Source of the DNA: Ceratorhiza oryzae-sativae
Taxonomy: Eukaryota > Basidiomycota > Agaricomycetes > Cantharellales > Ceratobasidiaceae
Direction of reading: 5' to 3'
Assembly (NCBI GenBank): GCA_030998015.1
Contig: JARWMV010000011.1
Span: forward strand, 1-64,000
DNA length: 64,000 nt
The notes under the pieces are model-generated. The model ran no database searches and was not told where the DNA came from. It was given only the letters and a program-made list of their open reading frames with translations. A program made the position numbers and the translations under genes. This document shows, piece by piece, positions 1,669-19,148 of the stretch; the first letter of the stretch is position 1; each line of letters starts with the position of its first letter.

Positions 1669-2972
1669 TGTTATGGATTACTAACATTTTATTTCATTAT
1701 AGTCTGCCCTTGCCAACTGTGATGTGATCCCTTTTTTGAACTTTATTGTAAATGAAAGAATTTGTACATGTTCCATTTATACTGCTTTGTATCTCATAAA
1801 ATAGTATGAATTCTCCTCTTTCAAACGCATATTTCATCGTGATTTTATCTTAAGAATTCAGTAAGATATGAAGGTTGGGATATTTCCACCTTCAAGGTGA
1901 TTTTGATCACCGGATCGCATCGCTTATATCTCGGCAACCGCTAACGCTATAACGGTGGTCAAGTACTCATTCGATATCTAACATTCAGGCACATCTTCTG
2001 ACCGAAATCGATCGGCGATATCGAAGCGATCTACAGCCCGACGCGGCCCGAACATTGTCGGGATCTGATTGGATCATCAAACAAGATCCACTGACTCAAG
2101 TGAGTCAGGAGAACCACCCCAATTCATCTAGATGCTTCCTTGACTCACCTTATGACTCACTGAGAGGTTAGCTCACTTCTTTATATGTATATACCATGAA
2201 TAATATATGAAACAGCCAATAGCATGTCTTCAATTGCATGCTGCCATTGATCTGCTCCCATTCTTTAAACCACTCTTCCTATACTGGGTAATGGAGTCCC
2301 CTGGTATAGCAGTACCCTCTTTGATGATCAACTTGGCATGCATGCAGTTATTTGGCTCTGGAGTACCCTTTGCAGGGTATAACAGGACCTCCTCTGGGAC
2401 CCTTCCAGACCACTCCCTCCCTCTACTCACCCAGACAGCTATGGTTTCCTTTTCTCTCTTATATCTTTCTGTGTGATTCTCTTTGTAACTAGTCTGAACC
2501 ATAAGTAGTATCAGATATAGTTATATCCTGTGTGATTCATAAGTATCTTATACACAAAGATATATAAGGATACTTCCTTGCCTGATTGAGTGTGACTTGA
2601 GTACCAACCAGTAGAACTATAAGTATCTATTGGGATTGAGGTGCAGTACATGCATTAGGCAGTACCCCATTAATTCCATAAGCAACAGCTTAATCTAGAA
2701 TTAAGATTAGTATCAGTTAGTACAAGCAGCTAGGGCTGAACTACATTTAAGCTATCTAAGGGAGCCTGACCATAGTAGTCTTGCTCTTTATAACTCTAAA
2801 TTAGTCAGTTTATATTGTGAACAATTAAGACTATATTAAGTGTTACTTGATTGCATTGAACTACATTGAGCCTTCTTACTCAAGTCTAAGAAGTATTGAG
2901 TATGATTAGGGAATACTAACCTATCTTATTTTCTTAAGATACAGAAATCTAAGTGTAACCTGACCTGTAACA
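1669..2972 (-). repeat. Solo-type LTR (copy A), minus orientation, cuts the integrase fragment
   Basis: Read on the minus strand this begins TGTTACAGGTCAGG and ends near CCATAACA, with TG..CA termini. It aligns along its whole length, in inverted orientation, with the LTR at 3,785-5,094. Shared blocks include the TATCTCGGCAACCGCT motif, the GACTCAC repeats and the CATAACA end. No 5-bp TSD is seen (CTATT on one side, GGACC on the other), so a deletion or recombination has removed one flank. Copies A and B are clearly diverged, so they are not recent. Confidence 0.8.
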
Positions 2973-3784
2973 GGACCCTCACATTTTTCATGACTAATCA
3001 ATGAATTGGCCTCTCTTTTTGACATTTTCTCCACTCTTGCTCACATTTTTGGTACCTTGACTGAAGATGAGGTGGTATATAGGGGACTCAGGGCACCAGG
3101 GTACTTTGAATGAGCACCCATATACCCTGTGTTGTATGCTGTATGACATGGACACACCAGCAACCTGAGTGGATCAAGCCTTGTGCAAGGACTACTCTGG
3201 CTGTACAGTGTGCTGGTGTGTCCATCTCACATAAGTGAAGTGGGCTTGGCAGTTCATGTCTTCCCCAACAGCTCATGCATGCATGCAGTGCCAAGGGAAC
3301 ACATGCCCAGTGTGGGCATGCATATGCCATATGCACACCTGCACTCATGACTGCCTGCCAGATCCAAGGTCCTATTAACAATCACCTGTATACACTTTAT
3401 CTGACCCCCATCCTACCCCCATCCTACAGGATTCAATCCTAGCTCATCCTAGCTAGGCCTATAACCTGTGGCAAAGCCTATTATTAGGTACTTTGTTGGT
3501 CCTTGGGCACTATCAATGAATTTGAAGATACATTATTCCCAGTACTTCTATATACACGCAAGAACCCTGATGCACTGGGTCATAGCTGGGGGAGAGGCCT
3601 CCTTTTGGGGTCAATCTGGAAAGGGGGCACTTTCTCCAGAAATAAGGTATAGGTACTGATGAGTGAATAACTATACATTACAAATACATCCATTAAGCTT
3701 CACACATTCTATCCTATCTGATAGCCTGAATTTTTCTCATATATCTGACTTTTTTTCCAGCCTCATTTCATCAGGTGGGGCTGG
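2973..3784. other. Unassigned spacer between two inverted LTRs
   Basis: About 0.8 kb with no recognisable domain on either strand. The longest open frames have the repetitive, cysteine- and histidine-rich look of translated GCATGC-rich DNA. It may be leftover internal sequence of the elements around it. I see no gene here. Confidence 0.5.
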
Positions 3785-5094
3785 TGTTATGGGTCAGGGT
3801 ACACTTGAATATCTAGAGCTTAAGCAAATGTAGATATGTTAGTATACACTAATCGTACTCAATACTTCTTAGACTAGAGTAAGAAGGCTCAAAGTAGTTG
3901 CAATGCAATCAAGTAACACTCAAGGTAGTCTTAATCTTTCACAGTGTAAACTGACTAATTTATAGGTATAAAGAGCAAGACTACTATGGTCAGGTTCCCT
4001 TAGATATCTTAAATGTAGTTCAGCCCTAGTCGCTTGGACTAACTGATACTAATCTTAATACTAGACTTTAAGTGATAGCTTATAGGATAGATGGTGGGCT
4101 GCCTAATGCATGTACTTCCTCAGCTACAGGTACTTAGATTTCCTCTAATAGCTGGTACTTAATGTCATGCTCAATCAGGCAATATTGTATCCTTATATAT
4201 CTCTGTATATAAGATACAATGAATCAGATAGTATATAACTAATATGGTACTTTATTCCTCAGTACTAGTTATATAAGAAATCACACACAGACAAGAGAAA
4301 AAGAAAGAGAAAAAGAAACCAATAACCAGCCTGGGTTGAGTAGAGGAGGGAAGGTGGTCTGGAAGGGCCTCAGAGGAGGTCCTTTTATACCCTGAGGAGG
4401 GCATTCCAGAGCCAAATAGATGCATGTATGCCAGTGCAATCATCAAAAGAGGGTACTGCTATACTTGGGATACACCCTAGCCCAGTATAGGATAAGAGAG
4501 TAAAGACAGGGTGTGGATCAAAGGCATTGATCCATCTAAGACCTGCTATTGGCTTGTAGATCATATTATCATAGTATATACATGTAATGAATGGAGGCTA
4601 CATCTCAGTGAGTCATAAAGTGAGTCAGAGAAGCTTCTGGATCAATTTGGAAGGCTCTCCTGACTCACTGCAGTCATTAGATCTTGATTGATGGTCCAGT
4701 AAGATTCTAATGATCTTTAGGCCATTCTGGCACAAGGATCCGGTGGATCGCAACGATCTTCGGGCAGCAGATACTGCCGAAGATCAGCTATCGATAGAGC
4801 ATAAGATCGCTTTGATAGCGTAAGCGGTTGCCGAGATATGAGCGGTGCGATGTTGTAATCAATATCTCCTGATAAGAGGAAATATCGCAACCTCTGTATC
4901 TCTCTGAGATCTTATTGTAAAAACATAATAAAACATGCATTGGAAAGCAGGAAATTTGTACTATTTAATGGAACAGAAAATAGTACAATTTGGGGTGCAT
5001 ACAAATTCAAGTATTTCACAATTTAATTACAGAGGCGTCACTTGAGGTTGGCAGAGCAGACTAAAATAATAGAAAATGTTAGTGATCCATAACA
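3785..5094 (+). repeat. Solo LTR (copy B) with perfect 5-bp target-site duplication
   Basis: The unit begins TGTTATGGGTCAGG and ends CCATAACA. It is flanked by GCTGG at 3,780-3,784 and by GCTGG at 5,095-5,099, so both borders are fixed by a perfect duplication. It is about 1,310 bp long and is the inverted counterpart of copy A. No internal retroelement domain adjoins it, so it is a solo LTR left by recombination between the two LTRs of a complete element. Confidence 0.88.
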
Positions 5095-6762: not shown

Positions 6763-8657
6763 TGCCTGACAAAGTTAGTAACTCTCCTGACATCCTGAGG
6801 ATTGTTGATATATGTATATCAGAGCCCTAAATACACAGCCGACACGAAGGTCCAGTGTCTGGATTGTAACGAGCTAGTTCATGTTTTGTTTTGTGGTCCT
6901 GCAGGCCTTGTTGAACATCGAGGGAAAGCTAAATGCCTGCTTGCACAAGCTAAACAGTCCAAGGCAGAGAAAGACAAGAATCAGTCAACTCTGCTTTGTT
7001 TTGGAATTTCTTCTAGTACTAGAACTTTGGACACAGCCCACAGCTTGGTCTCTTCGCTGCCAAAGCTTTCAACAGCTAATTCTACATTATCACTTAGCAG
7101 CTCTGGCATCAATCGTTTGTCTGAGGGGCAGCGTTTGTGCTCTGATGTCTTGCCCATGGATGGGCTATATGCTTCAGACACTATGCTACAGGATTCACAC
7201 TTGGTAACGCCTCCCTTGACACACACTATTGAACTTGAAGACAGCGACAAAGAGATTATAGAAATCATGCCACCACCTGTGACAGTGCTCAATAGCCCTG
7301 GTGCAAATGCTAGAACGATCCGAATGGCAGTTTCGCAGCCTTCCAACACTATAAGCACCCACACAGGTACTGTAGCCATGCATACACGCTCTCCCCACTC
7401 TTCATTCAGGTGTAGGGGTATTACGTTTAGTTTTGCAAGTGGACAGAATCCCTTTTTGCATTATCCATATGCTCTACATGCTAGTCTTGCTTTACCTTGG
7501 GGTTTTGAGGTTCATAATCAACATATGATGCTTCGTGCCAATGCTTGCACAAGTTTCTCTTCTGGCACACTAGCTCCTGGGTTGCTCACATGTGCTCCAT
7601 GCAAAGCTTTGAATGGTTCTCAAGTACTTCGGGGAATCCAAGACCGCCTGACCACTGGAGCCCATGAGAACTTGTCCTGGCACTACCTATCAATGCATTC
7701 CTTACACGAGCTCCTTCAACAAAAAGCTAATCAGATTGATAGCTTTCAATCAAACAAACTGACTCAGGCTTGTAAACTTGCATCATGTGTACAGAATCTA
7801 GATGAACACAAGAAGTTCCTGGTAGCGATAGGAGCTGATCGTAGTGTACAGAGGGTAGGGGCACTAGTTGCCATCGCAGTCAAGCATAAACTAGGAGTTA
7901 GAGGCATTATTGAATGCTTCTGGAAGGCAGCTAAGGGGCTTTATCATCCAAAAGGATACTCTGATGAGGAGAAGATGAAGAGCCTTCTATTTTACTGATT
8001 AGGAGGTGTCCAAGTTGCCAATATTGCTCATCGAACTCTTGCACTCCCAGCAACATCGACCGTACACCAATATAAACTATCCTCAATGCTCAAGGCTTCT
8101 CCACAAAAACCTACACCAAATGAGGTTGAACACAACCTCAACAAAAACTTTTGTGACCTTGCTTGTTTACTTGGCACCAAATCAGCCCCTGATTATATCC
8201 TCATGTTTGATGAGCTTAAGGTGGAGGAGCGACCCTGTTTAGATGCAGTAACTGGGAAAGTACTTGGAATATGCAGGGAACATGGAGACTGTGTCTCTTT
8301 ATCAATAGATTCAGTACGGGAGCTTGAGCAGCTAGCTACTGCTGTTGATAACAAGGAAATCCATATTGCAACTGAGGTAATGTTATACCTGAGCAATCAT
8401 GTGTTAAAGATCTAACCACCATTATTGACAGTGTACTGTTGTGGCAATTGGGCTGCTGACATCAGAAAAGTGAATGTATGCAGCACGTCCTATCATGATA
8501 TCAGGGACATGCAAGTGCGAAAAAGCAAGCAAACATACAAAGCTTATCAGCACAGCTATTCAAGTCTGTAAGCAACTTGCTCCAAAACTTGGCCTTGGAG
8601 ATCTTCTGTCTATCACGTCTGATGGTGAGGCACGCTGAGGGGAGTCAATCTCTGAAC
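6763..8657 (+). pseudogene. P-element/THAP9-like transposase gene, 5' half (split by LTR insertion)
   Basis: The best start is the ATG at 6,763, although a 1-base shift lies between it and the long frame from 6,802. Near the N-terminus a C-x2-C..H..C cluster (VQCLDCNELV) suggests a zinc finger. A low-complexity Ser/Thr stretch follows. The RNase-H-like catalytic start is at about 8,190-8,380, where MFDELKVEE followed by GKVLGICREHG resembles the LxFDEM..GYVD block of P-element and THAP9 transposases. An intron of normal size lies at about 8,377-8,431. In-frame TGA codons occur at 7,996-7,998, 8,471-8,473 and 8,636-8,638, each where relatives as I recall them have Arg, fitting CGA to TGA decay. 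Reading continues in the segment after 19,148. The family assignment is inferred from motifs. Confidence 0.65.
8653..8657. other. Target-site duplication TGAAC, left copy
   Basis: TGAAC directly precedes the left LTR, and the same five bases directly follow the right LTR at 19,144-19,148. Five bases is the usual duplication size for Ty3/gypsy elements. The duplication shows that both LTRs belong to a single insertion event. Confidence 0.9.
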
Positions 8658-9537
8658 TGTCGTGACCCTCTGGAGGCTCCCTTGTGGAGCACTTAAGTAG
8701 TGGCTGTGTTTACGGTTTGGTGCTATGCAGTATGTATTGAGCGTTCTAGTTACAGTGTTTGCTATGGTCTATGGTGGTTGACAAGATAAAGCAAGCTGAG
8801 GCGTTCAGTCTTGCTTTACTCCCCTTATATATATGTGACTGTGGTTGCTGCAGTGGCCCCTCTTTCCTAAGTGCTGTCTATAGCAGTTATAGGTTCTATA
8901 TAGTACTAGGTCTTAGGTAATTGTTTATCCTATGTTTGTGCAGCTCCGAATCTTATAGAGCTGCACAAGGTCCGAGGGTCATGTGACCTTTTTGGACTTA
9001 AGCACCCGGCGCTTAATCGCTGGATAAGCGCCGAGGTCACGTGACAACTTGCTCCTCGCTCCAGGTAACATGGGAGAGAAACGCTGGAGCAAGTTCAGGG
9101 TAACCACCAGTGCTTAATCGTTGGTAAGCGCCGAGATCACGTGACAACTCGCTCCTTGCTCCAGGTAACATGGGAGAGAAACGCTGGAGCAAGTTCAGGG
9201 TAACCACCAGTGCTTAATCGTTGGTAAGCGCCAAGATCACGTGACAACTTGCTCCTCGCTCCAGGTAACATGGGAGAGAAACGCTGGAGCAAGTTCAGGG
9301 TAACCACCGGCGCCTAATCGTTGGTAAGCGCCAAGATCATGTGCCAACTCGCTCCTCGCTCCAGGTAACATGGGAGAGAAATGCTGGAGCAAGTTCAGGG
9401 TAACCACCGGCGCTTAATCGTTGGGTAAGCGCCAAGATCACGTGATCCTGTTTATGGTTTGTTCCGCTTTGGGAAAAATGCCATAAATCTGTACAATATT
9501 CGGTTGTTAGGTTATGTCTGCTAGGCAGGTCATAACA
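8658..9537 (-). repeat. 3' LTR with expanded 100-bp tandem repeats
   Basis: On the minus strand this starts TGTTATGACC and ends near GAGGGTCA..CA. It is 880 bp, against 571 bp for the partner LTR. The surplus comes from a 100-bp tandem repeat: the marker GCTTAATCG recurs at about 9,011, 9,112, 9,212, 9,312 and 9,412, whereas the partner LTR has only two such markers. Each unit carries the E-box CACGTG (9,038, 9,138, 9,238, 9,439), mutated to CATGTG at 9,338. A minus-strand TATA-type motif lies near 8,823-8,835. Confidence 0.92.
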
Positions 9538-9554
9538 TTATCCCCCCCTTTGGA
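9538..9554 (-). other. Polypurine tract of the retrotransposon
   Basis: Directly inside the 3' LTR the minus strand reads CAAAGGGGGGATAA, followed by the LTR start TGTTATG. A G-rich purine run touching the 3' LTR is the standard primer site for plus-strand DNA synthesis. It shows that the cargo block lies inside the retrotranscribed unit. Confidence 0.8.
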
Positions 9555-9615
9555 CATGTCTTGGGGGATCTCGAGGCATGTTTCTTTTCTGGGTTCTAAA
9601 AGTTTCTAAAAGGTA

Positions 9616-9745
9616 TCTCATATATCGAGGAGGTTAAGGGCGCTGGACTCGAACCCACAACCTTCCGTTCAATGTGTAATTGCTCAGCTAGGAGATGATG
9701 AGTCAGGCTAGACCCCTTAACCTCTACGCTACATGAGATTACTTT
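9616..9745 (-). repeat. tRNA-derived (SINE-like) sequence forming a long hairpin
   Basis: On the minus strand there is a perfect pol III B-box core, GGTTCGAGTCC, preceded by AAGGTTGTG as in tRNA genes, and a possible A-box near TAGCTGAGC. The outer flanks pair with each other: ATCTCAT with ATGAGAT, and GAGGTTAAGGG with CCCTTAACCTC. The T-stem is imperfect and no convincing anticodon arm exists, so this is not a working tRNA gene. It may be a SINE head or a decayed tRNA carried with the cargo. Confidence 0.4.
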
Positions 9746-9835
9746 CTCCTTGCTTATTTCCTTGTTTAAGCTTACTTCTCGACACATGGTCTGAGAATAA
9801 AAACAGCTTATACAAAGATAATTGATTTTTATTCT

Positions 9836-10840
9836 TTAAGGAAAAACAAAAAATGGCTTCCCTCCTGAGTATACCCAGTCTACGTTTTTGGATACCCATA
9901 GGTCCCCTTCTTCCCCCTCTATGTCTGTCCAACACTTCATTATGGCCGACCGGCTATTCCCCAGGATCACTGTCGGTTGTACCTTCATTGACTTCACATG
10001 AGCATATCTGCCTGTGAAGTCTGCCTCGTACTGGCTCAGGGCTTTGAGCGAGTACTTCCCGTTTGACTGGACCATGTCATCCAGGATCCAGATGTCGGCG
10101 TCCTCCGACAGATTCCCCACGTTCCAGACGTTGCACATCTGGCTATGGGAGCCCTTGGATCGTGCATACACCGTCTTCCCAGTTCCTGTTTTGCCTTCAA
10201 TCACCAGGATGCGATGGCGCATGCCCCTCCCTCTCTTCTCAGCCTCTTCCGCGAACCATCGGTCCACCCTGTCAATGTGAGCCTGGTCTTCTGGGGCTTC
10301 CAACTCCACCAGGATTGCAGGCATGCATCCCCAGTCCTCCTTATATGTGTACTCAGCATATGCTTGTACTGAGTTCCACGTTGTCACCATCTGGAGGGGG
10401 CGCAGGCGCTTGAATGCCTGGTAGTACTCTTTTTTTGTCGCCGAGGCAACAATCTCCGCCCTGTCCTCCAGGTCCACCTCCGCCCTTGACCTTTTCCTGC
10501 CCTTTCCCTTCACCAGGATTTCCTCCAACCTTTCCGAGGTCAGGTCCCCCGCCATCAGCTCCTCTACCTCCTTGCCGTTAGCTCCGACATCCTTCCAGAG
10601 GTAGTTGAAAGCCTCCCTTGCAGGGTTGCCTCCTGGTCCATCCTTGAGGTCCTTCGGCAGGATGTTGGGGTGTTGCCCCTCGAAGTCCCAGAACCAGGTG
10701 TTCTGGGTGTTCCAGCCGCCCTTCTGCTCCTGACTGATGGAGAGGGCGTGGACATGGAGGGGCCGGGCTGGGTCATAGTTCGGTTCCTCGGGGTTGTGGC
10801 GTTCCACCACTGCCAAAGTCGCCCAATGATTTGGCCGTTG
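9836..10840 (-). CDS. Geminivirus/genomovirus-like replication-associated protein (Rep), endogenous
   Basis: At least 326 codons are open without a break. Near the N-terminus is HVHALS, matching HUH endonuclease motif II. WFWDF..HPNI follows, which resembles the geminivirus Rep sequence. Then comes YLWKD, matching motif III with the catalytic Tyr. The C-terminal half is a superfamily-3 helicase: Walker A GKTGTGKT, Walker B WILDDM and motif C VILGNS. Such Reps nick and start rolling-circle replication of circular ssDNA viruses. Motif I is not recognised. The frame stops just upstream, so the 5' part lies in another exon or is lost. Integrated Reps are known from fungal genomes, but this one lies within an LTR retrotransposon and is intact while pol is broken. 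An unrelated SF3 protein is unlikely given the joint motif order. Confidence 0.85.
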   Translation of the reverse strand, partial: QRPNHWATLAVVERHNPEEPNYDPARPLHVHALSISQEQKGGWNTQNTWFWDFEGQHPNILPKDLKDGPGGNPAREAFNYLWKDVGANGKEVEELMAGDLTSERLEEILVKGKGRKRSRAEVDLEDRAEIVASATKKEYYQAFKRLRPLQMVTTWNSVQAYAEYTYKEDWGCMPAILVELEAPEDQAHIDRVDRWFAEEAEKRGRGMRHRILVIEGKTGTGKTVYARSKGSHSQMCNVWNVGNLSEDADIWILDDMVQSNGKYSLKALSQYEADFTGRYAHVKSMKVQPTVILGNSRSAIMKCWTDIEGEEGDLWVSKNVDWVYSGGKPFFVFP

Positions 10841-11165
10841 GCGGCAGAACGCCTTGTATCAGGCGACGAGCCCACTTGAGGGCTGATCGCGTAGCTTCAA
10901 CCAGGTCAGCAGCACCGCCCTGGTCTGGACGCGGAACCAAGGGGCCGGCATGGTTTCGGTCAGCTCTTTGGACCCTCAATCTGTCGGCATAGGCCGCATA
11001 GAAGTGGGTGAGGGGGCTTGGCTTGATACCGAGGGCGTTGGCGATGGCAATGCCGACCTCCACCCTTCGCTTGATCTGCTTGGCTGGGGTGTTGCCATGT
11101 TCGATCCATTTCTGCTTAGCATTGTTTACAGTTTTAGAGGTATTTGGGGACTGGGAAGAGAGCAT
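10841..11165 (-). CDS. Possible 5' exon or separate small ORF upstream of Rep
   Basis: A 130-codon frame starts with ATG at 11,165 and overlaps the Rep frame in another register. It encodes a basic, Ala-rich product with a possible helix (AADLVEATRSALKW). It has no recognised motif. It could be the first exon of the Rep gene, since a plausible splice acceptor with a CTGAT branch site precedes the Rep frame, or it could be the frame-shifted Rep N-terminus. Rep motif I was not seen in it, so the link is inferred from position only. Confidence 0.4.
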
Positions 11166-11662
11166 GAGAGTGCAGGTTATCTCAGGCCTTGTGCTTGTCT
11201 ATATAAGCTGCAAGGTCCGTTTTGATCATCACATGACTCCATCTTTCATTTGTTGTGATCACATGACCTTATTCCAGTGATGACGCATCTCCGAGGGGTG
11301 CCCTTCCATCCGTTCCTCCGCGTCAGCCTTGATCCTCGCTACACTCAGGGCCTCTGCTCCCCCACTTTGGTTGGTGCCCCCTCTCCGACCCCTCCGGTAG
11401 TTAGGGGATAGCGTATATTCACATGACTAGGCTAGGTCATGTGATTCCTGTGCTTTGTTGTTTGTTTTCTGGCAGGTGGTCACGTGACTAGGCTAGGTCA
11501 TGTGATTCCCGTGCTTTGTTGTTTGTTTTCCGGCAGATGGTCACATGTCTGTTGGTGTCACCTGACCAGACCTTGTTTTGATGTTTGTGCACGTTATTGT
11601 GTTGCACCGTGATTTTTAATGTTTGTGGTTTTGTTGTTTTCCTTCCTCATCCCGTCTTTACT
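11166..11662. promoter_or_regulatory. Divergent intergenic region with tandem palindromic repeats
   Basis: This 0.5-kb region separates the minus-strand Rep ORFs from a plus-strand gene. A roughly 61-bp unit is repeated. It contains the inverted repeat CACATGAC-TAGGCTAG-GTCATGTG at 11,420-11,443 and CACGTGAC-TAGGCTAG-GTCATGTG at 11,481-11,504, plus a partial third copy near 11,542. Further CACATGAC motifs lie near 11,230 and 11,263. It may be a two-way promoter or a relic of a viral-type origin with iterons. The TAATATTAC nonamer of geminivirus origins was not found. Confidence 0.55.
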
Positions 11663-12204
11663 ATGCGTGTTATTTCCCTTAACTACAATCCCCTTGACTG
11701 CACCTGCTGGTCTCTCCCTGAGGGGGAGTACTGCGCCTACTGTGATGCCGTGTGCGACGCCTCCCTTGAAGACTTCTATCGAGGTGTTGGGGACTGGTTC
11801 TTCTGTGGGGTGCCCAGTATGTGTGTTCGTTCTTTGTTGTTCTCACGTAGCTAACTTGTTCTGTAGAAGAGCGCATCCTCCTTGATGGTCGGGCCCATGA
11901 GGCCACCCTTGAGCGTGTCTGGGCGCTCGTTGATCAGGACCGCCAGTTATTTGAGCAGCAGCAACACCAGGCTGCCCTTGCTGAGTTTTTTGAGGAGGGC
12001 TCAGCCCCCTTGTTTGATGAGGCCTCACCCTTTGCGGCTTCTGGTTCTGGATGTTTCCAGAACTATATGGCCGATCTCCCAGGGGGGGAGGCCCCCTGGC
12101 TGTTGCCTGAGAACCGGGCTGGTGGTTCTGTGGCCCGTACTACTAGGAAGGATAAGCAGGCAAAAAAACCCTATACCCAGCCCCTCAAGGGCAAGAAAAA
12201 ATAG
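11663..12204 (+). CDS. Two-exon cargo gene, Cys-rich N-terminus and basic C-terminus, unknown
   Basis: Exon 1 is 11,663-11,816 and exon 2 is 11,867-12,204, joined across a 50-nt intron with a GTATGT donor and TGTAG acceptor; the frame is kept. The product is about 163 residues. The first 45 residues hold several Cys (CTCW, CAYCDAVCD), possibly a metal-binding knot. A Gln/Glu-rich helical middle follows, and the end is strongly basic (KGKKK). I do not recognise the family. It runs opposite to the retrotransposon and diverges from Rep across the palindromic repeats. A role as the second gene of an ambisense viral unit is only a guess from layout. Confidence 0.6.
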
Positions 12205-12286
12205 AAACATTTTGAAATGTATTATTATATGATTATGGAGATTATTCTTAAGACATTCCAAAAAAAACGTGTGATAGGCCCGATAA

Positions 12287-13105
12287 TCACAGGGGCTCCG
12301 GGGCCAGCAGGGGCACTTCCTCCAAGGTGCCTGCCAGCTCATCCTCCCATTTGGCCCAATCTGTTTGGACTCCCTCTTGGGCTGGGTCCGGGGTTGGTTC
12401 CTTTATCGTTACTCTCGGCTCCTCCTCCTTCACCACCAGGGACTCCAGGCTTGCCGTGAGGCTCAACATATCTGTGTCGTAACCGTGCAGGTTTGGGCGT
12501 ACCTTCACCCAGTTACGGAAGTCGGCCAAGTTTGCTTCCTTCAACCTGATGGCAGTAAACATTTCATCAGTGGTAGTGGCCTCAAGCAGTCCCACATACG
12601 GTGCCGCCGGTGCCAGCTTCCACTGCTCCAACAGTGCCTTTGCCCGGCGCTCCACCTCCCAGTCCCCTCCGTCTGCCATTTGGCCTGTGGCCCTCCTCTG
12701 TTGCCTTGCTGCCTTGGTCACCACGTCGACTGTTGGTCCCACGATATTGTCGACGACATACATCGGTGTTCTTAACAAGGCGTTTCTCGTCGTTGGCTTC
12801 CGGCTTCCATGCCATGTCAGGACCCCTAACCTGGGATCCAGGTACTTGTCATCGTCAATCCAGTTCCTTTCATCCCTTAACTTCTTTGGGATGTACACTA
12901 GGTTAGCCCCTGGCAACAGTCGTTCGGCGTACCTCTGGGCGTCTTCCACACTGGAGCAGTACATCCCTGGTTTAGGACGATTTTCCCTGCCAGGGTAGGG
13001 TGCTGGCCGCCTGGTGGTGGGTGGCTGCCGAAGTGGGGCCACCTGATTTTCGGCAAGTGGGGTGTAACGGTTGGGATGTGCGATTGGGTGAGTGACGAAA
13101 GGCAT
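12287..13105 (-). CDS. Cargo ORF of 272 residues, unknown function
   Basis: An uninterrupted frame starts with ATG at 13,105, about 90 bp after the integrase stop. It encodes a Pro/Arg-rich N-terminus, a central region with the motifs YCSSVEDAQRYAER and PMYVVDNIVGPTVDVV, and an acidic C-terminus. There is no signal peptide, membrane segment or zinc cluster. Its GC content is higher than that of pol. Extra ORFs downstream of integrase in LTR elements are sometimes env-like, but this has none of the hydrophobic segments expected of an envelope. Its transcription in the element's direction fits co-expression with pol. It converges tail to tail with the 163-residue gene. Confidence 0.6.
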   Translation of the reverse strand: MPFVTHPIAHPNRYTPLAENQVAPLRQPPTTRRPAPYPGRENRPKPGMYCSSVEDAQRYAERLLPGANLVYIPKKLRDERNWIDDDKYLDPRLGVLTWHGSRKPTTRNALLRTPMYVVDNIVGPTVDVVTKAARQQRRATGQMADGGDWEVERRAKALLEQWKLAPAAPYVGLLEATTTDEMFTAIRLKEANLADFRNWVKVRPNLHGYDTDMLSLTASLESLVVKEEEPRVTIKEPTPDPAQEGVQTDWAKWEDELAGTLEEVPLLAPEPL

Positions 13106-13192
13106 GCTTTTGGGGTTTCGCAGGTGTGTTGTGGTGCAAGTGAGGTAGTAGAGCAGGCTCTGGCCTTTCTTGGGTATCCTGGATGGCTCCTT

Positions 13193-14578
13193 TTAAAGCT
13201 TTCCAGATCCTCGTTTGGTTCTCTTTGGCCTGCCTTTCGAGTCACCTGAGTGCTGACTTGTCTTGACTGGCATTGGTGCGTCTGGTAAGCGCCTTTGCAA
13301 GTCATTTAGAACCTCTTTCATGTCAGCAAACTTGCTGGCACGTTCCATTGTGTCTTCTATTGGGTCGTAGCCCTTCCATCTGATTTGGTAAAACAGCTTG
13401 CCATTCCGCCATTCATAATTTGCAATGTGGTCCACCTCGTATTCCTCCTCTCCTTTTTCCGTTATGATTGGTGGTGGTTTGGCCTGCCTTCTTCGGAAGT
13501 CTTTATCTTCTGTGAATGGCGAGAGGAGATTTACATGGAATACATTGTGTACACGTATGGTTTTAGGTAGGTCCAGGCGATATGCATGGGATGAGATCTT
13601 TTCTGTGATTTCAAAGGGCCCCCCTTTTCGGTTGTCCAGTTTCTTGGAGGGTCTCTTGGACGAGAGGTTTGTTAGGAGCAGCCAAACCTTGTCTCCTACC
13701 TTGAATTCCCTCCCTTTCTTTTCCATTTGTTGGTGTAATTCCATTGAGGCTCTTGCCTCATCCCATACCTTTTCCATTTGATTACGCATGTTGTCTGCAG
13801 CGGGTGCCTCAGATGGTTCTTCTCCCTCTCGGACAACCCATCTTGGGTTTTTTCCATATACTGTTTCAAATGGGGTTTGTCCTGTTGTAGCATTTACGTG
13901 GTTGTTATGGCAGAATTCGGCAATGGGTAACCATTTTACCCAATCATCTTGTCTATAATTGCAGAAGGTTCTTAAGAACCCTTCTACCCATTGATTTGTC
14001 CTTTCCGACAGACCATCTGTTTCTGGATGGAAAGCAGTGGAGAATCTGGGCTTTGTCCCAATTCCTTTGTATAGGGCTTTAGGAATTGGCTGTTAAAGGT
14101 TGGCCCTCGGTCTGAGACAGTGGTTTCTGGGGTCCCGTGATGTCTCCATACTTCCCTTATGAATATTTCTGCCAGTTCTTCTGCATTGGTGCTCTCCAGA
14201 CATGGTACAAAATGGGCCTGCCGGGAGAAGCGATCTACAACTGTCAATACTGTCGTACCCCTTTGAGACAGGTAATTTGACGATGAAATCATATGCGACA
14301 TCTGCCCATGGTTTCCATGGGATTGGTAAGGACTTCAGGGGAGTGCCTTGTTTGTGTCCTTTGCTTCTTTGACACGTTTCACAAGATTCCACGTATCGGT
14401 TTACTTGGGCCTTCATTCCTGGCCAATAGTAATCCCTTGATAGTAATTCTAGTGTTCGGGCTTGTCCCTGATGACCTGCCACTGGGGCGTCATGGCACTC
14501 CTCAAGGAGACTCAACCTCAAGTCCTTGTCATCTGGGATGTAGAGCCTATCGTCATACCTTAATAGGCCCTCCTTCAT
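13193..14578 (-). pseudogene. Integrase with chromodomain of the retrotransposon (frameshifted)
   Basis: Three frames together give the usual order. First is an HHCC zinc-binding module (H-x-A-P-V-A-G-H and CETC). Then comes the DDE core with VDRFS and SDRG, and the TDG part is reached only after a shift near 14,030. Last are the C-terminal beta region (VGDKVWLL) and a chromodomain (EYEVDHI..FYQIRWKGY) at about 13,340-13,480. The chromodomain's usual TWEP is TMER here. Shifts lie near 14,265 and 14,030. Chromodomain integrases guide insertion to histone-marked heterochromatin. Confidence 0.9.
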
Positions 14579-15912
14579 TTCATACCGTCTAAATTCCTTC
14601 TGTACTGAGGGCGGTAGTTGTTCTTATTTGCCACACTCAGCCTTAAGGATCTGATAGATTCGTCTTCTTCCTGAGCTTCTTTAAGCTCTTCCCAGAAATT
14701 CCCCTGTACTTCTGCCATGAAACCTATGAACCTTTCTTCTGGAATCATGATCTGTGGTTCCATAGGGGTATCCCCATGGTCGCTCCTTCTGGAAAGGGCA
14801 TCTGGCTTCTGTGAGAGTTTCCCTGGTCTATACACAATCTGAAAATTGAAGGGTGCCAGAGTGAGATACCATCTGGCATGCCTTCTATTCCACATCTGGG
14901 CATTTTGCCAGTACTGGAGGTTCCTATGGTCAGTGTATATCACAATAGGTTCCTCTGTCCCTTCTAAGTATAACCTCCAGTGCTCTAAGGACCTAACAAT
15001 TGCAAGCAACTCCTTGTCGTAGGTGTCATAATTTTTCTCTGGTGGGGTGAAGCTCTTCGATAGGAAGGCAATTGGATGCAATCGGTTGTCATCACCCTTT
15101 TGGCTTAGTACCGCCCCCATGGCCACTCCTGAGGCGTCTGTTTCCAGTATGTATGGCCTGTTTGGGTTTGGGTGGATCAGGACCGGTTCTCTTGCTACTG
15201 CTTCTTTGATAGCTTCAAATGCTTCCTGTTGTTTTCTTTCCCACAGGAATTTGACATCTTTTTGGGTGAGATCTGTGAGGGGTTTGGCTAAGGTACTAAA
15301 CTTCTCTATCCACCTTCTATAGAACCCCACGAAGCCTAGGAAGGCTTGGACTTCTTTTACTGTGTTAGGTTCTGGCCATTCTAGAACTGCCTTTACCTTT
15401 TCCTTTTCCATCGATATCCCTTCTGGGGATATGACAATTCCAATGAAGCTTACCTCCTTCACAAAGAACTGACACTTGTGTGGTTTGAGGAAGAGGTGGT
15501 TTTCCCTCATTCTTCTTAACACTTCCCTGACATGTTGTACGTGTTCTTCCCTGTTTCTGGAAAACACTAGTACATCGTCCATGTAGATTACCACATAATC
15601 GTCTATTATGTCACGGAACTTTTCCATCATGAACCTGGTAAAGGTTCTTGGTCCTTCTTTTACTCCGAATGGCATGACCAAGCATTCAAACTGGCCTTCT
15701 CCTGTCCTGAAAGCTGTTTTCCATTCGTCTCCCTCTTTTACCCTGATGTTGTTGAACCCCCATCGAACATCCATTTTTGAATAGATGGTTGCATCCTTCA
15801 GTCTCTCAATCAATTCTATTTGGATTGGAAGTGGAAACCTGTCTGGCTTGGTGATGTCATTCATCTTACGGTAGTCGACTACCAACCTAAGCCCTCCATC
15901 TGCTTTGTTCAC
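14575..15912 (-). pseudogene. Reverse transcriptase and RNase H of the retrotransposon
   Basis: The 445-codon open frame covers RT and RNase H. RT shows LVVDYRKMND, the catalytic YMDDVL (Y-x-D-D) and the SFIGIVIS thumb-side motif. RNase H shows LETDASGVAMGAV and YTDHRNLQYW, typical of Ty3/gypsy. The N-terminal RT residues are read in the protease frame because a single base is missing near 16,007. The 3' end is shifted against integrase near 14,580. Both enzymatic domains look internally intact in sequence. Confidence 0.93.
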
Positions 15913-16489
15913 ATAGAAACAGGGTGCAGCTACAACTGACTGGCTGGGCCTTATTTTCCCGTTTCTTAGTTCCTCCTCTAGGTACTCCCTGAGCGCCTTT
16001 GTTTCTGCTGGACATACTGTACCTCTTTGCAGGCTTTGGCAGCTCCGCTCCCTCGATCAGGTCCATTTTGAAGTCTAGGTTACCTCGGTGGGGTGGAAGT
16101 TCTCGGAAACCTTCTTCCCCAAATAGGTCTTCAAAATCCCTAAATTCTTCTGGGATTTGTAGGCTTTCACTTGCTGCCCTTGCCTTGATTTCGTCTGGGT
16201 ATGAGATGGTAAGGTCTTTCCAATCTATGATAGGTTCTGCTTCTTCAAGCCATTCTTTCCCTAGGACTATGTCTGTGTCACCTAGGGTCATTACATAAAG
16301 GGAGCATTTTAGTGTCTTCCCTTCCACTTCGATGTTTAGTTCTGCCCTTTCTTCTATGGCATCCTTGATTTCATTTCCATCAATGGCCACAATTGATTTC
16401 TTGTGTTTGAGGGGAGTGGTTGGAATCCCTTTTTCCCTTGAATAGGCCTTATCGATGAAGTTGGTTGAAGATCCTGAGTCAATCAGCGT
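15887..16489 (-). pseudogene. Aspartic protease region of the retrotransposon
   Basis: The protease active-site motif LIDSGSS lies at about 16,465-16,485. A flap-side block (TDIVLGKEWL) and the protease-RT linker follow. A TAA at 16,490-16,492 stands two codons before LIDSG and cuts it off from gag, and the linker runs into the wrong frame near 16,007. The protease would normally cleave the Gag-Pol precursor inside the particle. Confidence 0.85.
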
Positions 16490-16616
16490 TTAGCTGGTTC
16501 CATGATTCCCTCTACCGTAGTGTATATTATTGATTGATTACTAGACTTCTTGAGGTAACATACATCTGCGGTAGGGGTTATATTGGGGTCCTCCAACATG
16601 GAAGTGGTAGGACCAA

Positions 16617-18451
16617 TTAGTTTTCCGACTCAGAGCTGCTTTCTTCCTCAACTTGTCTGCTGGCCTTCCCTTGTATCTTAGCTTTGTCGTAGGTCCACTG
16701 GCCTCGGCACTCCTTCAGGACATGCCCTGATTTACCGCATTTGATACAGAGTCCTTCTTTCCTTCGCCTGTCCTTTTCACTGTTTGGTATCCTTACCATG
16801 TTGTTGGTTTGGGTATTCCCCTGTTTGCCGCTGGTCCCTAAAGGCTTGTTCCCCCTTGTTTGTATTTCGCTGGTGCCCAGGTTGAATTTGATGAGTTGCT
16901 GGTCCTTGTATTCATTTTCTGGTTTGCAAACTGCATGTCATCCATTTTGCAGGCAAAGTCAATTAATTGATCTAAGGTATATGATGGACCTTCAGCCTCA
17001 TTTGCCAGTACTTCAATCCTTAAGATCTCTTGTCGTACTTCGGGTTTTAACCCTTCCCTGAATTGGTCCTTGAGGGCTTCCTGGTTCCAGTCTACCTCTT
17101 GGATCAGGATCCGGAATTGGGTAGCATAATCCAATGCACTCTTGGTCTGTGTTAATTTCCTTAGTTTCCGGATGGTCTTTTCCTTTATGACTGGGTCATT
17201 AAAAGCATCCAGGAATCCCTTCCTGAAATCCTTCCAGGATGCAAGAATACCTGTGTGTTCGCCTGCTAGTAGTTTCCGGCGGTAAGGTTGTGCCCAGTTT
17301 GCTGCTTCCCCATCCTCCATGTTCATTAGCACAGCAGATATCTTTTTTCGGTCATCAAAGGCTGATTCGTCATAGTCAGCAAAGAAAAGTTCCATGCTGA
17401 TTATGAAGTTCTCTGCTTCCTTCCCCTTTTTCCCATTAAATTTGCTGGGTCTCCCTAGTCTCGCCTCCTTAGGAGTGTGGTTTGCAGCAAGGGTAGGTTG
17501 GTTTGCTTGGGATGGAGGTTCTGTTCGGGGTCTTATTGTGGACTCAGCCTGGAAGGTTCTTCCCAGAAAAGGTGTTCGTACTGGGGAGGCTGAGGGGGAT
17601 CGTGAGGGGCTTCCTATGACCACCCTAGTTCTTCCCCTGGTTTCTTCTGTCCTTTCCCTTGGCCTTCCTGCTTCAGTTGTTTTCCGGAGCTCATTTCCTA
17701 GATCGGTTACCCGTTGTTCTAGTGCGATTAGGATCTCCCCTGTGTTTTCGGTTTTCTTCTCTAAGCTTTCGAGCTTTCGCTCTTGCATTCCCAGTACCCG
17801 GTTTATTTCCATGGAGATGTCCTTTAATTCTTTTATCAGGTTCCCCATTTCTGCTTTTAGGTCGTCCTGGTTCTTTGCCACATAGAGGACATTTTTGTTG
17901 GATGTTTCCATAGACCTTACCATCCAGTCCACGTTTCCTTCTTGTCGGGTTAGTGATATTTGACACTGATTTATACCCGTGATTGCCTTTTCTAGTTCCC
18001 TATGATTATTGTCTCTAAGTTCCTTGAGCCCCGCCCTGATGGCTGTGGCAATGGTGTGAATAGGGTTGGCAGTGGCTATGGTTCCGGGACCTGGCTGGGG
18101 TTGTGTCCTTGCCTCTTCCGCCAAGGCCGTGCCTTGTTCGTATATGGTTCGGGTCATATCTTCTACCTCATCCCTCTCTGGATTTGAGATATCTTCTGGG
18201 TCTGGATTTATCAGGTGAATTGGCGGTTGAGGGCTGCGGAGTGGTATTCCCCCTATTTCCCCTCCCAGGATGGGGGCCCGAGTGGGGTTGGGTTGAGCCA
18301 CTGGTCGTGGGTTTTGTGGCAACCCCCCTGGCATTCCTTGGAGGGTCTCATCTGGGTTACCTTCAGCCTCTGGGGAAGCAATGGGTTTGGGTGATTGTGG
18401 CCTACTATTTGCCACTCTGCTTTGAGATCGAGTTTGTGGTCTCTGTGACAT
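16617..18451 (-). pseudogene. Gag (capsid and zinc knuckle), frameshifted near the 3' end
   Basis: The 537-codon frame from the ATG at 18,451 has a Pro/Ser-rich head, a coiled-coil stretch (about residues 190-260) and a retrotransposon-gag capsid core (FNGKKGKEAENFI and WKDFRKGFLDAF). The nucleocapsid zinc knuckle C-x2-C-x4-H-x4-C (CIKCGKSGHVLKEC) lies at 16,617-16,799 in another frame, so a shift lies between about 16,800 and 16,840. Gag forms the particle that packages element RNA. Confidence 0.9.
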
Positions 18452-18572
18452 AGTTTCTTTGTGTTCTCTTATGTATCACAGGAGTTAGCTGGTTTTCTCG
18501 TGTACTCAGCCCTTAGTATCTGTGCAGTATACTTATGTTCGCCACTAGTTAAGTTAAGAGCTTGCTTTATAA

Positions 18573-19143
18573 TGTGTGACCCTCTGGAGGCTCCCTTGTG
18601 GAGCACTTAAGTAGTGGCTGCGTTGACGGTTTGGTGCTATGCAGTATGTATTGAGTGTTCTAGTTACAGTGTTTGCTATGGTCTATGGTGGTTGACGAGT
18701 AAAGCAAGCTGAGGTCCAGTCTTGCTTTATCCTCCTTATATATACCTGTGGCTGCGGTGGCTGCGGACGTATTATCTAAGCACACTCCGCAGTAGTAGGT
18801 TATGTACAGTACTATGGGTTAGGTAATTGTTTGTCCTAAGTTTGTGCGGCTCCGAATCTTATAGAGCCGCGCAAGGTCCAAGGGTCATGTGACCTTTTTG
18901 GACTTAAGCACCTGGCGCTTAATCGCTGGATAAGCGCCAAGGTCATGTGACAACTCGCTCCTCGCTCCAGGTAACATGGGAGAGAAACACTGGAGCAAGT
19001 TCAGGGTAACCACTGGCGCTTAATCGTTGGGTAAGCGCCGAGATCACGTGATCCTGTTTATGGTTTGTTCCGCTTCGGGAAAAATGCCATAAATCTGTAC
19101 AATATTCGGTTGTTAGGTTATGTCTGCTAGGCAGGTCATAACA
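18573..19143 (-). repeat. 5' LTR of the retrotransposon, 571 bp
   Basis: It matches the LTR at 8,658-9,537 along its length except for the missing three 100-bp units. Its outer end (TAACA at 19,143) touches TGAAC at 19,144-19,148. A minus-strand TATA-like motif sits near 18,731-18,742, consistent with promoter function. Base differences between the LTRs are frequent enough to show that the insertion is not new. Confidence 0.92.
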
Positions 19144-19148
19144 TGAAC
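19144..19148. other. Target-site duplication TGAAC, right copy
   Basis: It is identical to 8,653-8,657. If one copy and the element are ignored, the host transposase frame continues without a shift. Confidence 0.9.

What the first reader, a model, noticed from the sequence alone, without database searches (positions are those of the whole stretch)
9836..10840. Intact geminivirus/genomovirus-like Rep gene inside an LTR retrotransposon
The frame shows HUH motif II (HVH), a geminivirus-Rep-like block (WFWDF..HPNI), motif III (YLWKD) and an SF3 helicase (GKTGTGKT, WILDDM, VILGNS). It lies between integrase and the polypurine tract of a chromovirus, within both LTRs, so reverse transcription would copy it with the element. 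Rep-like inserts are known in fungal genomes. A Rep riding as cargo in a Ty3/gypsy element is, as far as I know, not described. The Rep frame is open while pol has five or more lesions, which suggests later acquisition or selection.
Basis: partly seen in the sequence, partly recalled or inferred. Interest (0 to 1): 0.92.

Follow-up and report, generated by a model that had tools for sequence, protein, structure and literature searches.

The report
Retrotransposon family carrying virus-type Rep gene
A fungal retrotransposon family present in many copies carries, as a regular and selectively maintained part, a replication gene of the type otherwise used by small circular single-stranded DNA viruses and plasmids, so two very different ways of copying DNA are joined in one mobile element.

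Summary
Window 8658-19143 is a 10,486-bp Ty3/gypsy chromovirus with two LTRs and a 5-bp target duplication (TGAAC), coded on the minus strand. Between integrase/chromodomain and the polypurine tract lies a cassette: an orphan ORF ('ORF301'), a small intron-bearing gene on the opposite strand, and a Rep gene. Rep is a two-domain relative of geminivirus-like Reps: its profile aligns with phytoplasma plasmid Reps over 306 columns (E 4.5e-7, 92.6%), far above reversed and shuffled controls. This copy is not intact (two in-frame TGA stops), but 32 of 123 Rep places in the genome have stop-free matches and open frames of at least 426 aa. In all 19 other fetched copies Rep adjoins the family's LTR; 14 of these also hold RT. 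A sister RT (65% identical) has Rep at nearly the same distance, so acquisition looks old. Between subfamilies Rep is under strong purifying selection. An intron-like insert in the sister's Rep is precisely absent from the abundant family, as copying through spliced RNA predicts. What Rep does is inferred: acting on element DNA, or on the host. No paper listing seen describes it.

The parts
8653..8657 (.). target-site duplication TGAAC, left copy
8658..9537 (-). 3' LTR (with 4.3 copies of a 100-bp tandem repeat)
   Evidence: TG...CA ends
9538..9551 (-). polypurine tract next to the 3' LTR (AAAGGGGGGGATAA on the minus strand)
   Evidence: sequence read directly
9836..11125 (-). Rep gene (HUH endonuclease + SF3 helicase type), homologous to geminivirus-like Reps; two in-frame TGA stops at 10978-10976 and 10861-10859, open from 10858 to the TAA at 9838-9836
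10592..10603 (-). motif III, YLWK (coordinates counted by hand from the translation)
11200..11205 (-). TATATA upstream of Rep: possible promoter of its own
   Evidence: sequence only; not tested
11211..11662 (.). divergent intergenic region; two 61-bp repeats at 11419-11540, each with TCACRTGACTAGGCTAGGTCATGTGA (transcription-factor sites or, conjecturally, an origin)
11663..12204 (+). antisense cargo gene, two exons with a predicted 50-bp intron (11817-11866), 163 aa if spliced; relatives not searched in the large database
12287..13192 (-). ORF301, orphan cargo ORF (301 aa stop to stop; 272 aa from ATG)
13193..14578 (-). integrase (H2C2 zinc finger, SH3, chromodomain)
14575..15912 (-). reverse transcriptase / RNase H
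   Evidence: RVT_1 7.7e-34, RT_RNaseH 1.8e-36
15887..16390 (-). aspartyl protease region (below cut-off)
   Evidence: RVP_2, 15.4 bits against cut-off 20.3
16600..18460 (-). gag region; CCHC zinc knuckle read by eye near 16690-16760
   Evidence: sequence only
18573..19143 (-). 5' LTR
19144..19148 (.). target-site duplication TGAAC, right copy

Best explanation
The Rep gene is an integral, old and selected gene of a chromovirus-type Ty3/gypsy retrotransposon family in a Ceratobasidium-like fungus. SHOWN: it lies with two further cargo genes (ORF301, antisense gene) between integrase and polypurine tract; the LTR unit, Rep included, is what sits at different genomic sites in the copies fetched; the Rep protein evolves under purifying selection. 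INFERRED with good support: Rep is copied with the element by reverse transcription in sense orientation (an intron-like insert precisely missing in the abundant family, present in the sister), while the antisense gene keeps its intron because it is not spliced out of the element's RNA. INFERRED, weaker (about 0.4 against about 0.35 for the host-directed rival): Rep works as an active nicking and helicase enzyme on the element's own extrachromosomal DNA, for example on LTR circles or cDNA, adding a DNA-level amplification or maintenance step to the reverse-transcription cycle.
For: Place: in the window and all 19 other fetched copies the Rep side ends at the same LTR edge, with 18 distinct adjoining 5-mers among 20; 40 of 41 junction matches run unbroken through LTR end, purine tract and Rep 3' end (40 of 410 candidates scored; the 41st covers the LTR part only). 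Linkage: 101 of 123 Rep places have ORF301 upstream on the same strand within 8 kb, 94 of them at 1.0-2.5 kb, against 2 and 3 of 123 in two controls; 59 of 97 RT places have Rep downstream within 9 kb, 50 of the 59 at 3.5-4.3 kb. Age: sister on C12, RT 65% and Rep 71% identical, 3,667 bp apart on the same strand. Homology. Selection: dN/dS 0.10-0.12 between subfamilies in the true frame, 1.09-1.84 in four of five other frames (the fifth, reverse +2, gives 0.21-0.23); outside CpG sites nonsynonymous:synonymous 13:63, 16:61 and 18:90 for L030 against L045, L047 and L046, where neutrality predicts about 2.4:1. Frame-shifting indels 0.25 per kb in Rep against 5.07 and 4.34 in the adjoining noncoding stretches (16 of the 19 other copies). 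Catalytic residues: 9 of 10 inspected positions identical in 23 of 23 loci, the tenth in 22. Intron: in L046 motif I stands in another frame, followed by a GTAAGC...CATAG stretch, before the block that is continuous in the abundant family; an insert at the same place is seen in several metagenome relatives.
Against: No transcript, protein, circle or activity data. No TATTAC-type nick site anywhere in the element on either strand; the palindromic 61-bp-repeat motif was found in 15 of 20 copies only and may be transcription-factor sites. Structure prediction failed twice (mean pLDDT 37.7 and 40.0), so the fold is not shown. 22 of 123 Rep places had no ORF301 and 65 of 123 no scored RT nearby; 38 of 97 RT places had no scored Rep. 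Among 64 database relatives the catalytic positions are not always kept: the tyrosine in 45 of the 52 that cover it, the second His of HxH in 39 of 41; many of those are gene models or fragments. dN/dS is 0.30 between L045 and L047 and 0.22 within the 20 copies, weaker than between subfamilies; L046 comparisons are saturated in dS. Intron loss rests on one sister copy (itself with a stop, and with LTRs unread) and on metagenome proteins of unknown DNA/RNA origin.
Confidence: 0.6

Rival explanations
1. Rep serves the element by acting on the host (cell cycle, replication factors, DNA methylation or silencing), not by replicating element DNA.
For: CpG decay is the main mutation between copies (CpG sites in Rep 10.1% minority states against 0.58% at sites outside CpG and TpG/CpA), which suggests DNA methylation of the element and a benefit from countering it; geminivirus Reps are known to disturb host methylation and cell cycle (recalled, no call); no recognisable origin in the element.
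Against: HxH, YxxK, Walker A and motif C residues are kept in 23 of 23 loci, one Walker B Asp in 22, more than a mere host-binding role would need; but most of the protein is conserved, so this is weak.
Confidence: 0.3
2. Neutral passenger: a viral Rep sequence captured by chance and carried along without function.
For: Capture of foreign genes by LTR elements is known (nodavirus-like gene in a Bel/Pao element, PMC5177903, abstract with introduction and one section read); 60 of 123 Rep places have a stop in the matched stretch.
Against: dN/dS about 0.1 between subfamilies and 13-18 against 61-90 changes outside CpG; few frame-shifting indels; present beside a sister RT of 65% identity.
Confidence: 0.06
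3. Rep is a separate mobile element (endogenous virus or DNA transposon) that inserted into retrotransposon copies.
For: Gemini-like Rep transposons with terminal inverted repeats exist in fungi (42 copies in Tuber, PMC3198968, passages read). Rep and pol can differ in divergence between copies, and ORF301 is replaced by a diverged version in L043/L044.
Against: The only common border in 20 copies is the LTR edge; order and spacing with ORF301 are kept in 94 of 123; unbroken junction with purine tract and LTR in 40 of 41 matches.
Confidence: 0.04

Closest known systems
Terminons (giant Penelope-like retroelements of rotifers; reviewed in PMC6431247, passages read)
   Same: A retroelement that carries a rolling-circle replication initiator (Rep) among accessory ORFs
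   Different: Penelope-like RT, endonuclease-deficient, telomeric, up to 40 kb; here a Ty3/gypsy chromovirus with LTRs, integrase and a Rep kept at a fixed place in many copies
Geminivirus-like TIR transposon of Tuber melanosporum and other fungal Rep-like sequences (PMC3198968, passages read)
   Same: Gemini-like Rep amplified in a fungal genome (42 copies in Tuber; 5 Rep sequences in Laccaria)
   Different: There Rep lies with transposase ORFs between 37-bp terminal inverted repeats; the paper has no occurrence of 'retrotranspos' or 'gypsy'
Phytoplasma plasmid geminivirus-like Rep (e.g. NC_007717.1, NC_010856.1)
   Same: Two-domain Rep, collinear over 306 profile columns
   Different: Plasmid replication protein; about 20% identical; NC_007717.1 scores PF00799 at 3.7e-20, whereas 1 of 37 fungal relatives matches it, at E 0.23
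Nodavirus-like gene in a Bel/Pao retrotransposon of Bursaphelenchus (PMC5177903, abstract with introduction and one section read)
   Same: Viral replication gene captured inside an LTR element
   Different: RNA-virus polymerase, Bel/Pao; no large family with the gene as a regular part in what I read
Ty3/gypsy chromoviruses (recalled)
   Same: Pol order, chromodomain, purine tract, LTRs
   Different: Extra 3.6-kb cassette with Rep, ORF301 and an antisense gene

Membership tests
Ty3/gypsy chromovirus (LTR retrotransposon) | two LTRs with short target duplication | tested here: met
   8658-9537 / 18573-19143, TGAAC on both sides
Ty3/gypsy chromovirus (LTR retrotransposon) | pol order RT-RNaseH-integrase with a C-terminal chromodomain | tested here: met
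   (Chromo 28.0 bits over cut-off 25.1)
Ty3/gypsy chromovirus (LTR retrotransposon) | aspartyl protease upstream of RT | tested here: inconclusive
   RVP_2 15.4 bits, below cut-off 20.3
Ty3/gypsy chromovirus (LTR retrotransposon) | primer binding site | not tested
   not examined
Geminivirus-like Rep (HUH + SF3), protein level | motif I, HxH, YxxK, Walker A, Walker B, motif C in order (motif names recalled) | tested here: met
   (in this copy motif I lies beyond a stop)
Geminivirus-like Rep (HUH + SF3), protein level | profile similarity over both domains to accepted Reps | tested here: met
Geminivirus-like Rep (HUH + SF3), protein level | Pfam Gemini_AL1 / Gemini_AL1_M above cut-off | tested here: not met
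   best 19.5 bits against 24 (AL1_M); AL1 E 0.23 in 1 of 37
Geminivirus-like Rep (HUH + SF3), protein level | HUH fold | tested here: inconclusive
   models of pLDDT 38 and 40, not usable
Integrated geminivirus/genomovirus genome | TATTAC-type origin next to Rep | tested here: not met
   no TATTAC in the element on either strand
Integrated geminivirus/genomovirus genome | capsid gene | tested here: inconclusive
   ORF301: no Pfam match, no protein relative at E 0.001; the antisense protein was not searched against Pfam or the large database
Helitron | one large Rep-helicase protein (over 1,500 aa), no LTRs | tested here: not met
   429-aa Rep inside LTRs; size of Helitron protein from PMC6431247
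Terminon | Penelope-like RT | tested here: not met
   RVT_1 followed by RNase H and integrase of the LTR-element type

The most novel reading that the evidence does not exclude
A hybrid replicon: an LTR retrotransposon that spreads by reverse transcription but also replicates its extrachromosomal DNA by rolling circle with its own Rep, starting in the divergent intergenic region, and that has kept this dual cycle through at least the split of two chromovirus families.
Probability: 0.25. Interest if true: 0.95.

Novelty: new variant of a known kind. Interest (0 to 1): 0.75.

Why it matters
It joins two replication worlds, reverse transcription and HUH/Rep DNA replication, in one selfish element, with evidence that the Rep is not dead weight. 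Copies with open Rep frames exist in number, so whether a retroelement can use a Rep on its own DNA becomes directly testable, and the case offers a route by which Rep genes of small DNA viruses and of mobile elements can exchange.

Tried and rejected
Structure prediction from 9 and 37 sequences gave unusable models, so no fold search was made. Viral contigs: no relative of the Rep family nor of a phytoplasma plasmid Rep was confirmed. tblastn of P0014: phages no match, plasmids 3 records with one weak match (E 9) under an integrase. PDB sequence searches: two or three matches each with E above 0.6, none a Rep. PF00799 gave nothing and PF08283 only two weak places in the own genome; neither model rang in any of the 14 control genomes. 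ORF301 has no relative at E 0.001 in the large protein database. A link between the antisense protein and the C-terminus of P0033 (AG-Ba) is too weak to use (E 0.087 in a set of 64). First thought: Rep diverges eight to ten times faster than pol (53 against 5-7 substitutions per kb), so it was swapped in recently. Much of this excess is CpG decay in a CpG-richer stretch; outside CpG the minority rate is 0.58% in Rep against 0.17-0.34% in pol, so I dropped it. Non-autonomous family: 4 of 20 copies share the junction 14006/17648 and lack pol, but all four also share the same 5-mer outside the 5' LTR, and only these four of 40 scored matches (298 candidates) carry the junction in full, so they may be segmental duplications. 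TATTAC-type origin: absent. tRNA-like stretch at about 9640-9750: neither ARAGORN nor Rfam agrees. The line that speaks of 17 copies is mislabelled: the set is 16 of 19.

Full report
What is there. The window's element spans 8658-19143 (10,486 bp) on the minus strand, with LTRs at 8658-9537 and 18573-19143 and TGAAC outside both ends. Pfam finds RT/RNase H (14575-15912), integrase zinc finger, SH3 and chromodomain (13193-14578), and a sub-threshold protease. A purine tract adjoins the 3' LTR. Between chromodomain and purine tract lies 3.6 kb of extra sequence with three gene-like units: ORF301, an opposite-strand gene with a predicted 50-bp GT-AG intron, and Rep. The intron pattern that I searched was found in 15 of 20 copies; it required a base before the donor that the window copy lacks, so 15 is a lower bound. 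Where a source names an organism, the Rep relatives are all Ceratobasidium (55 hits, 61; named only as hypothetical proteins or not at all), so the host is probably of that group; the genome itself is unnamed.

Is it a Rep? By family libraries alone one would hesitate. In the tables shown no Pfam or NCBIfam model reaches its cut-off for a Rep protein, and for the window's own frame an unrelated sub-threshold Transpeptidase match ranks first (0.0026). Over 37 relatives the best E-value is Gemini_AL1_M, 0.001 (19.5 bits against 24), matched by 11 of 37 at E 1 or better; nSTAND3, an NTPase model, is matched by 19 of 37 but more weakly (best 0.043). As a yardstick I took the rep gene of a phytoplasma plasmid: it scores PF00799 at 3.7e-20 but PF08283 at only 14.8 bits, so a low PF08283 score does not exclude a Rep. 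Eight such plasmid Reps (32 plasmid records match) were aligned and compared with the fungal family: 306 aligned columns from motif I to near the C-terminus, probability 92.6%, E 4.5e-7. The single plasmid Rep against the same profile had given only a 37-column Walker A match, probability 24.5%. The reversed profile gave 18.5 and twenty column shuffles at most 23.9, against 57.1. The names of the motifs are recalled. Fold not shown: both AlphaFold models are poor.

Is this copy intact? No. In the same frame upstream there are TGA stops at 10978-10976 and 10861-10859. In the whole genome, 63 of 123 Rep places have no stop in the matched stretch, and 32 of 123 have none and an open frame of at least 426 aa, 25 of them exactly 429 aa, the length of the largest AG-Ba cluster (P0001). 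The first look had 221 candidates of which 123 were scored, so the true number is probably higher; several LTR-Rep junction matches lie where no Rep was scored.

Is it part of the element? Twenty copies were fetched (L025-L044, L025 being the window; the best-scoring 20 of 123). In all of them the Rep side ends at the LTR edge; 15 of 20 (window included) also hold the RT stretch in order, two of these interrupted by other sequence (L036, L038); 4 lack pol through one shared deletion and 1 is truncated just after the Rep block. The 5-mers next to the 3' LTR edge are of 18 kinds in 20. Across the genome ORF301 (142 scored of 231 candidates) lies upstream of Rep on the same strand within 8 kb in 101 of 123, 94 of them at 1.0-2.5 kb, against 2 and 3 of 123 in controls. 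Of 97 RT places 59 have Rep downstream within 9 kb (95 of 1184 candidates had been scored), 50 of the 59 at 3.5-4.3 kb. Against: 38 of 97 RT places have no scored Rep nearby, and 65 of 123 Rep places no scored RT.

How old? A sister on C12 has RT 65% and Rep 71% identical to the window's, 3,667 bp apart on the same strand. Its Rep has a stretch that begins GTAAGC and ends CATAG, with motif I in another frame before it, where the abundant family reads straight on; several metagenome relatives show an insert at the same place. The simple reading is an intron lost by passage through spliced RNA. The antisense gene, whose intron would not be spliced from element RNA, keeps it.

Is it selected? Between subfamilies (L030 or L041 against L045 or L047) dN/dS is 0.10-0.12; the same DNA read in four other frames gives 1.09-1.84 and in the reverse +2 frame 0.21-0.23. 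L045 against L047 gives 0.30, and comparisons with L046 are saturated. Because CpG decay dominates old copies, I also counted only single changes outside CpG: 13:63, 16:61, 18:90, 25:99, 14:61 and 18:85 nonsynonymous:synonymous in six comparisons, where neutrality predicts about 2.4:1. Within the 20 copies the constraint is weaker (0.22 overall; 579:852 outside CpG over all pairs; CpG changes 124 nonsynonymous, 117 synonymous and 5 stop against 76:44:2 possible), as expected for decaying insertions. ORF301 (0.27-0.32, four comparisons) and the antisense second exon (0.28, 153 pairs) look constrained too, without a frame or CpG control. Frame-shifting indels per kb against the window in 16 of the 19 other copies (L034, L043 and L044 left out because ORF301 is diverged there): Rep 0.25, antisense CDS 0.87, ORF301 1.06, RT 1.11, integrase 2.50, gag/protease 3.01, intergenic 4.34, LTR-Rep gap 5.07 (the output's '17 copies' is a label error). 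With the three put back the counts are Rep 5, antisense 10, ORF301 36. Rep has none in 15 of 19. The pol values should not be used as evidence of decay: L030 matches the window at 100.0% in pol and yet differs by indels, which points to assembly error.

Mosaic structure. Copies with RT 99-100% identical in DNA to the window carry Rep proteins from 82% to 94% identical to the window's, and L043/L044 have ORF301 stretches at 74-85% where pol stays at 98% or more. Part of the Rep spread is CpG decay, but the pattern fits exchange of cassette pieces between elements, which template switching in reverse transcription would give (inference).

How it may work. Shown: place, homology, selection. Inferred: enzyme activity, because HxH, Tyr, Lys, Walker A residues and motif C Asn are kept in 23 of 23 loci and one Walker B Asp in 22; most of the protein is conserved, and among 64 database relatives (many of them fragments or odd gene models) the tyrosine is kept in 45 of 52, so this is supportive only. 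Two roles compete: acting on the element's DNA, or acting on the host. No TATTAC nick site exists in the element. The divergent intergenic region has two 61-bp repeats with the near-palindrome TCACRTGACTAGGCTAGGTCATGTGA, found in 15 of 20 copies; this is where a small DNA virus would keep its origin, but also where a bidirectional promoter would bind factors.

Novelty. Ten searches of the open-access library listed no paper that, by title and abstract start, reports a CRESS- or gemini-type Rep inside an LTR retrotransposon; some lists were capped (20 of 1,481, 20 of 44, 8 of 56). Nearest: Rep among accessory ORFs of rotifer Terminons (PMC6431247, passages), a TIR transposon with gemini-like Rep in Tuber (PMC3198968, passages), a nodavirus-like gene in a Bel/Pao element (PMC5177903, abstract with introduction and one section). 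Most subscription papers and preprints are not in that library.

Noticed in passing
window 1777-4988: Large imperfect inverted repeat: several arm pairs (70-91% complementary) nested around about 3400, perhaps a fold-back element.
   Followed up: no
window 9009-9445 against 18931-19030: A 100-bp unit is repeated 4.3 times in the 3' LTR but present about once in the 5' LTR; a diverged copy also lies at 561-660.
   Followed up: no
window 13193-18050 and L025-L044: Many single-base indels between copies with few or no substitutions: probable residual assembly error in near-identical repeats; pol lesions here should not be dated or counted.
   Followed up: partly
L029, L031, L032, L042: Four copies share one pol deletion (14006/17648) and the same 5-mer outside the 5' LTR, with different 3' flanks; origin unclear.
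   Followed up: partly
L043, L044 (and L034): ORF301 and intergenic region replaced by diverged versions while pol stays at about 98% or more: mosaic elements.
   Followed up: partly
window 9640-9750: tRNA-like stretch with complementary ends and a B-box-like sequence between Rep and the purine tract, seen by eye; no ARAGORN or Rfam support.
   Followed up: partly
window 6802-7998 (+): 398-aa open frame with no Pfam match just left of the element.
   Followed up: no
P0016, P0021, P0024, P0056, P0057, P0060, P0061, P0063 (metagenome relatives): Insert (whole or its end) at the position of the C12 intron; P0022 and P0027 lack it, so intron loss may be seen there too, unless they come from RNA.
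   Followed up: partly
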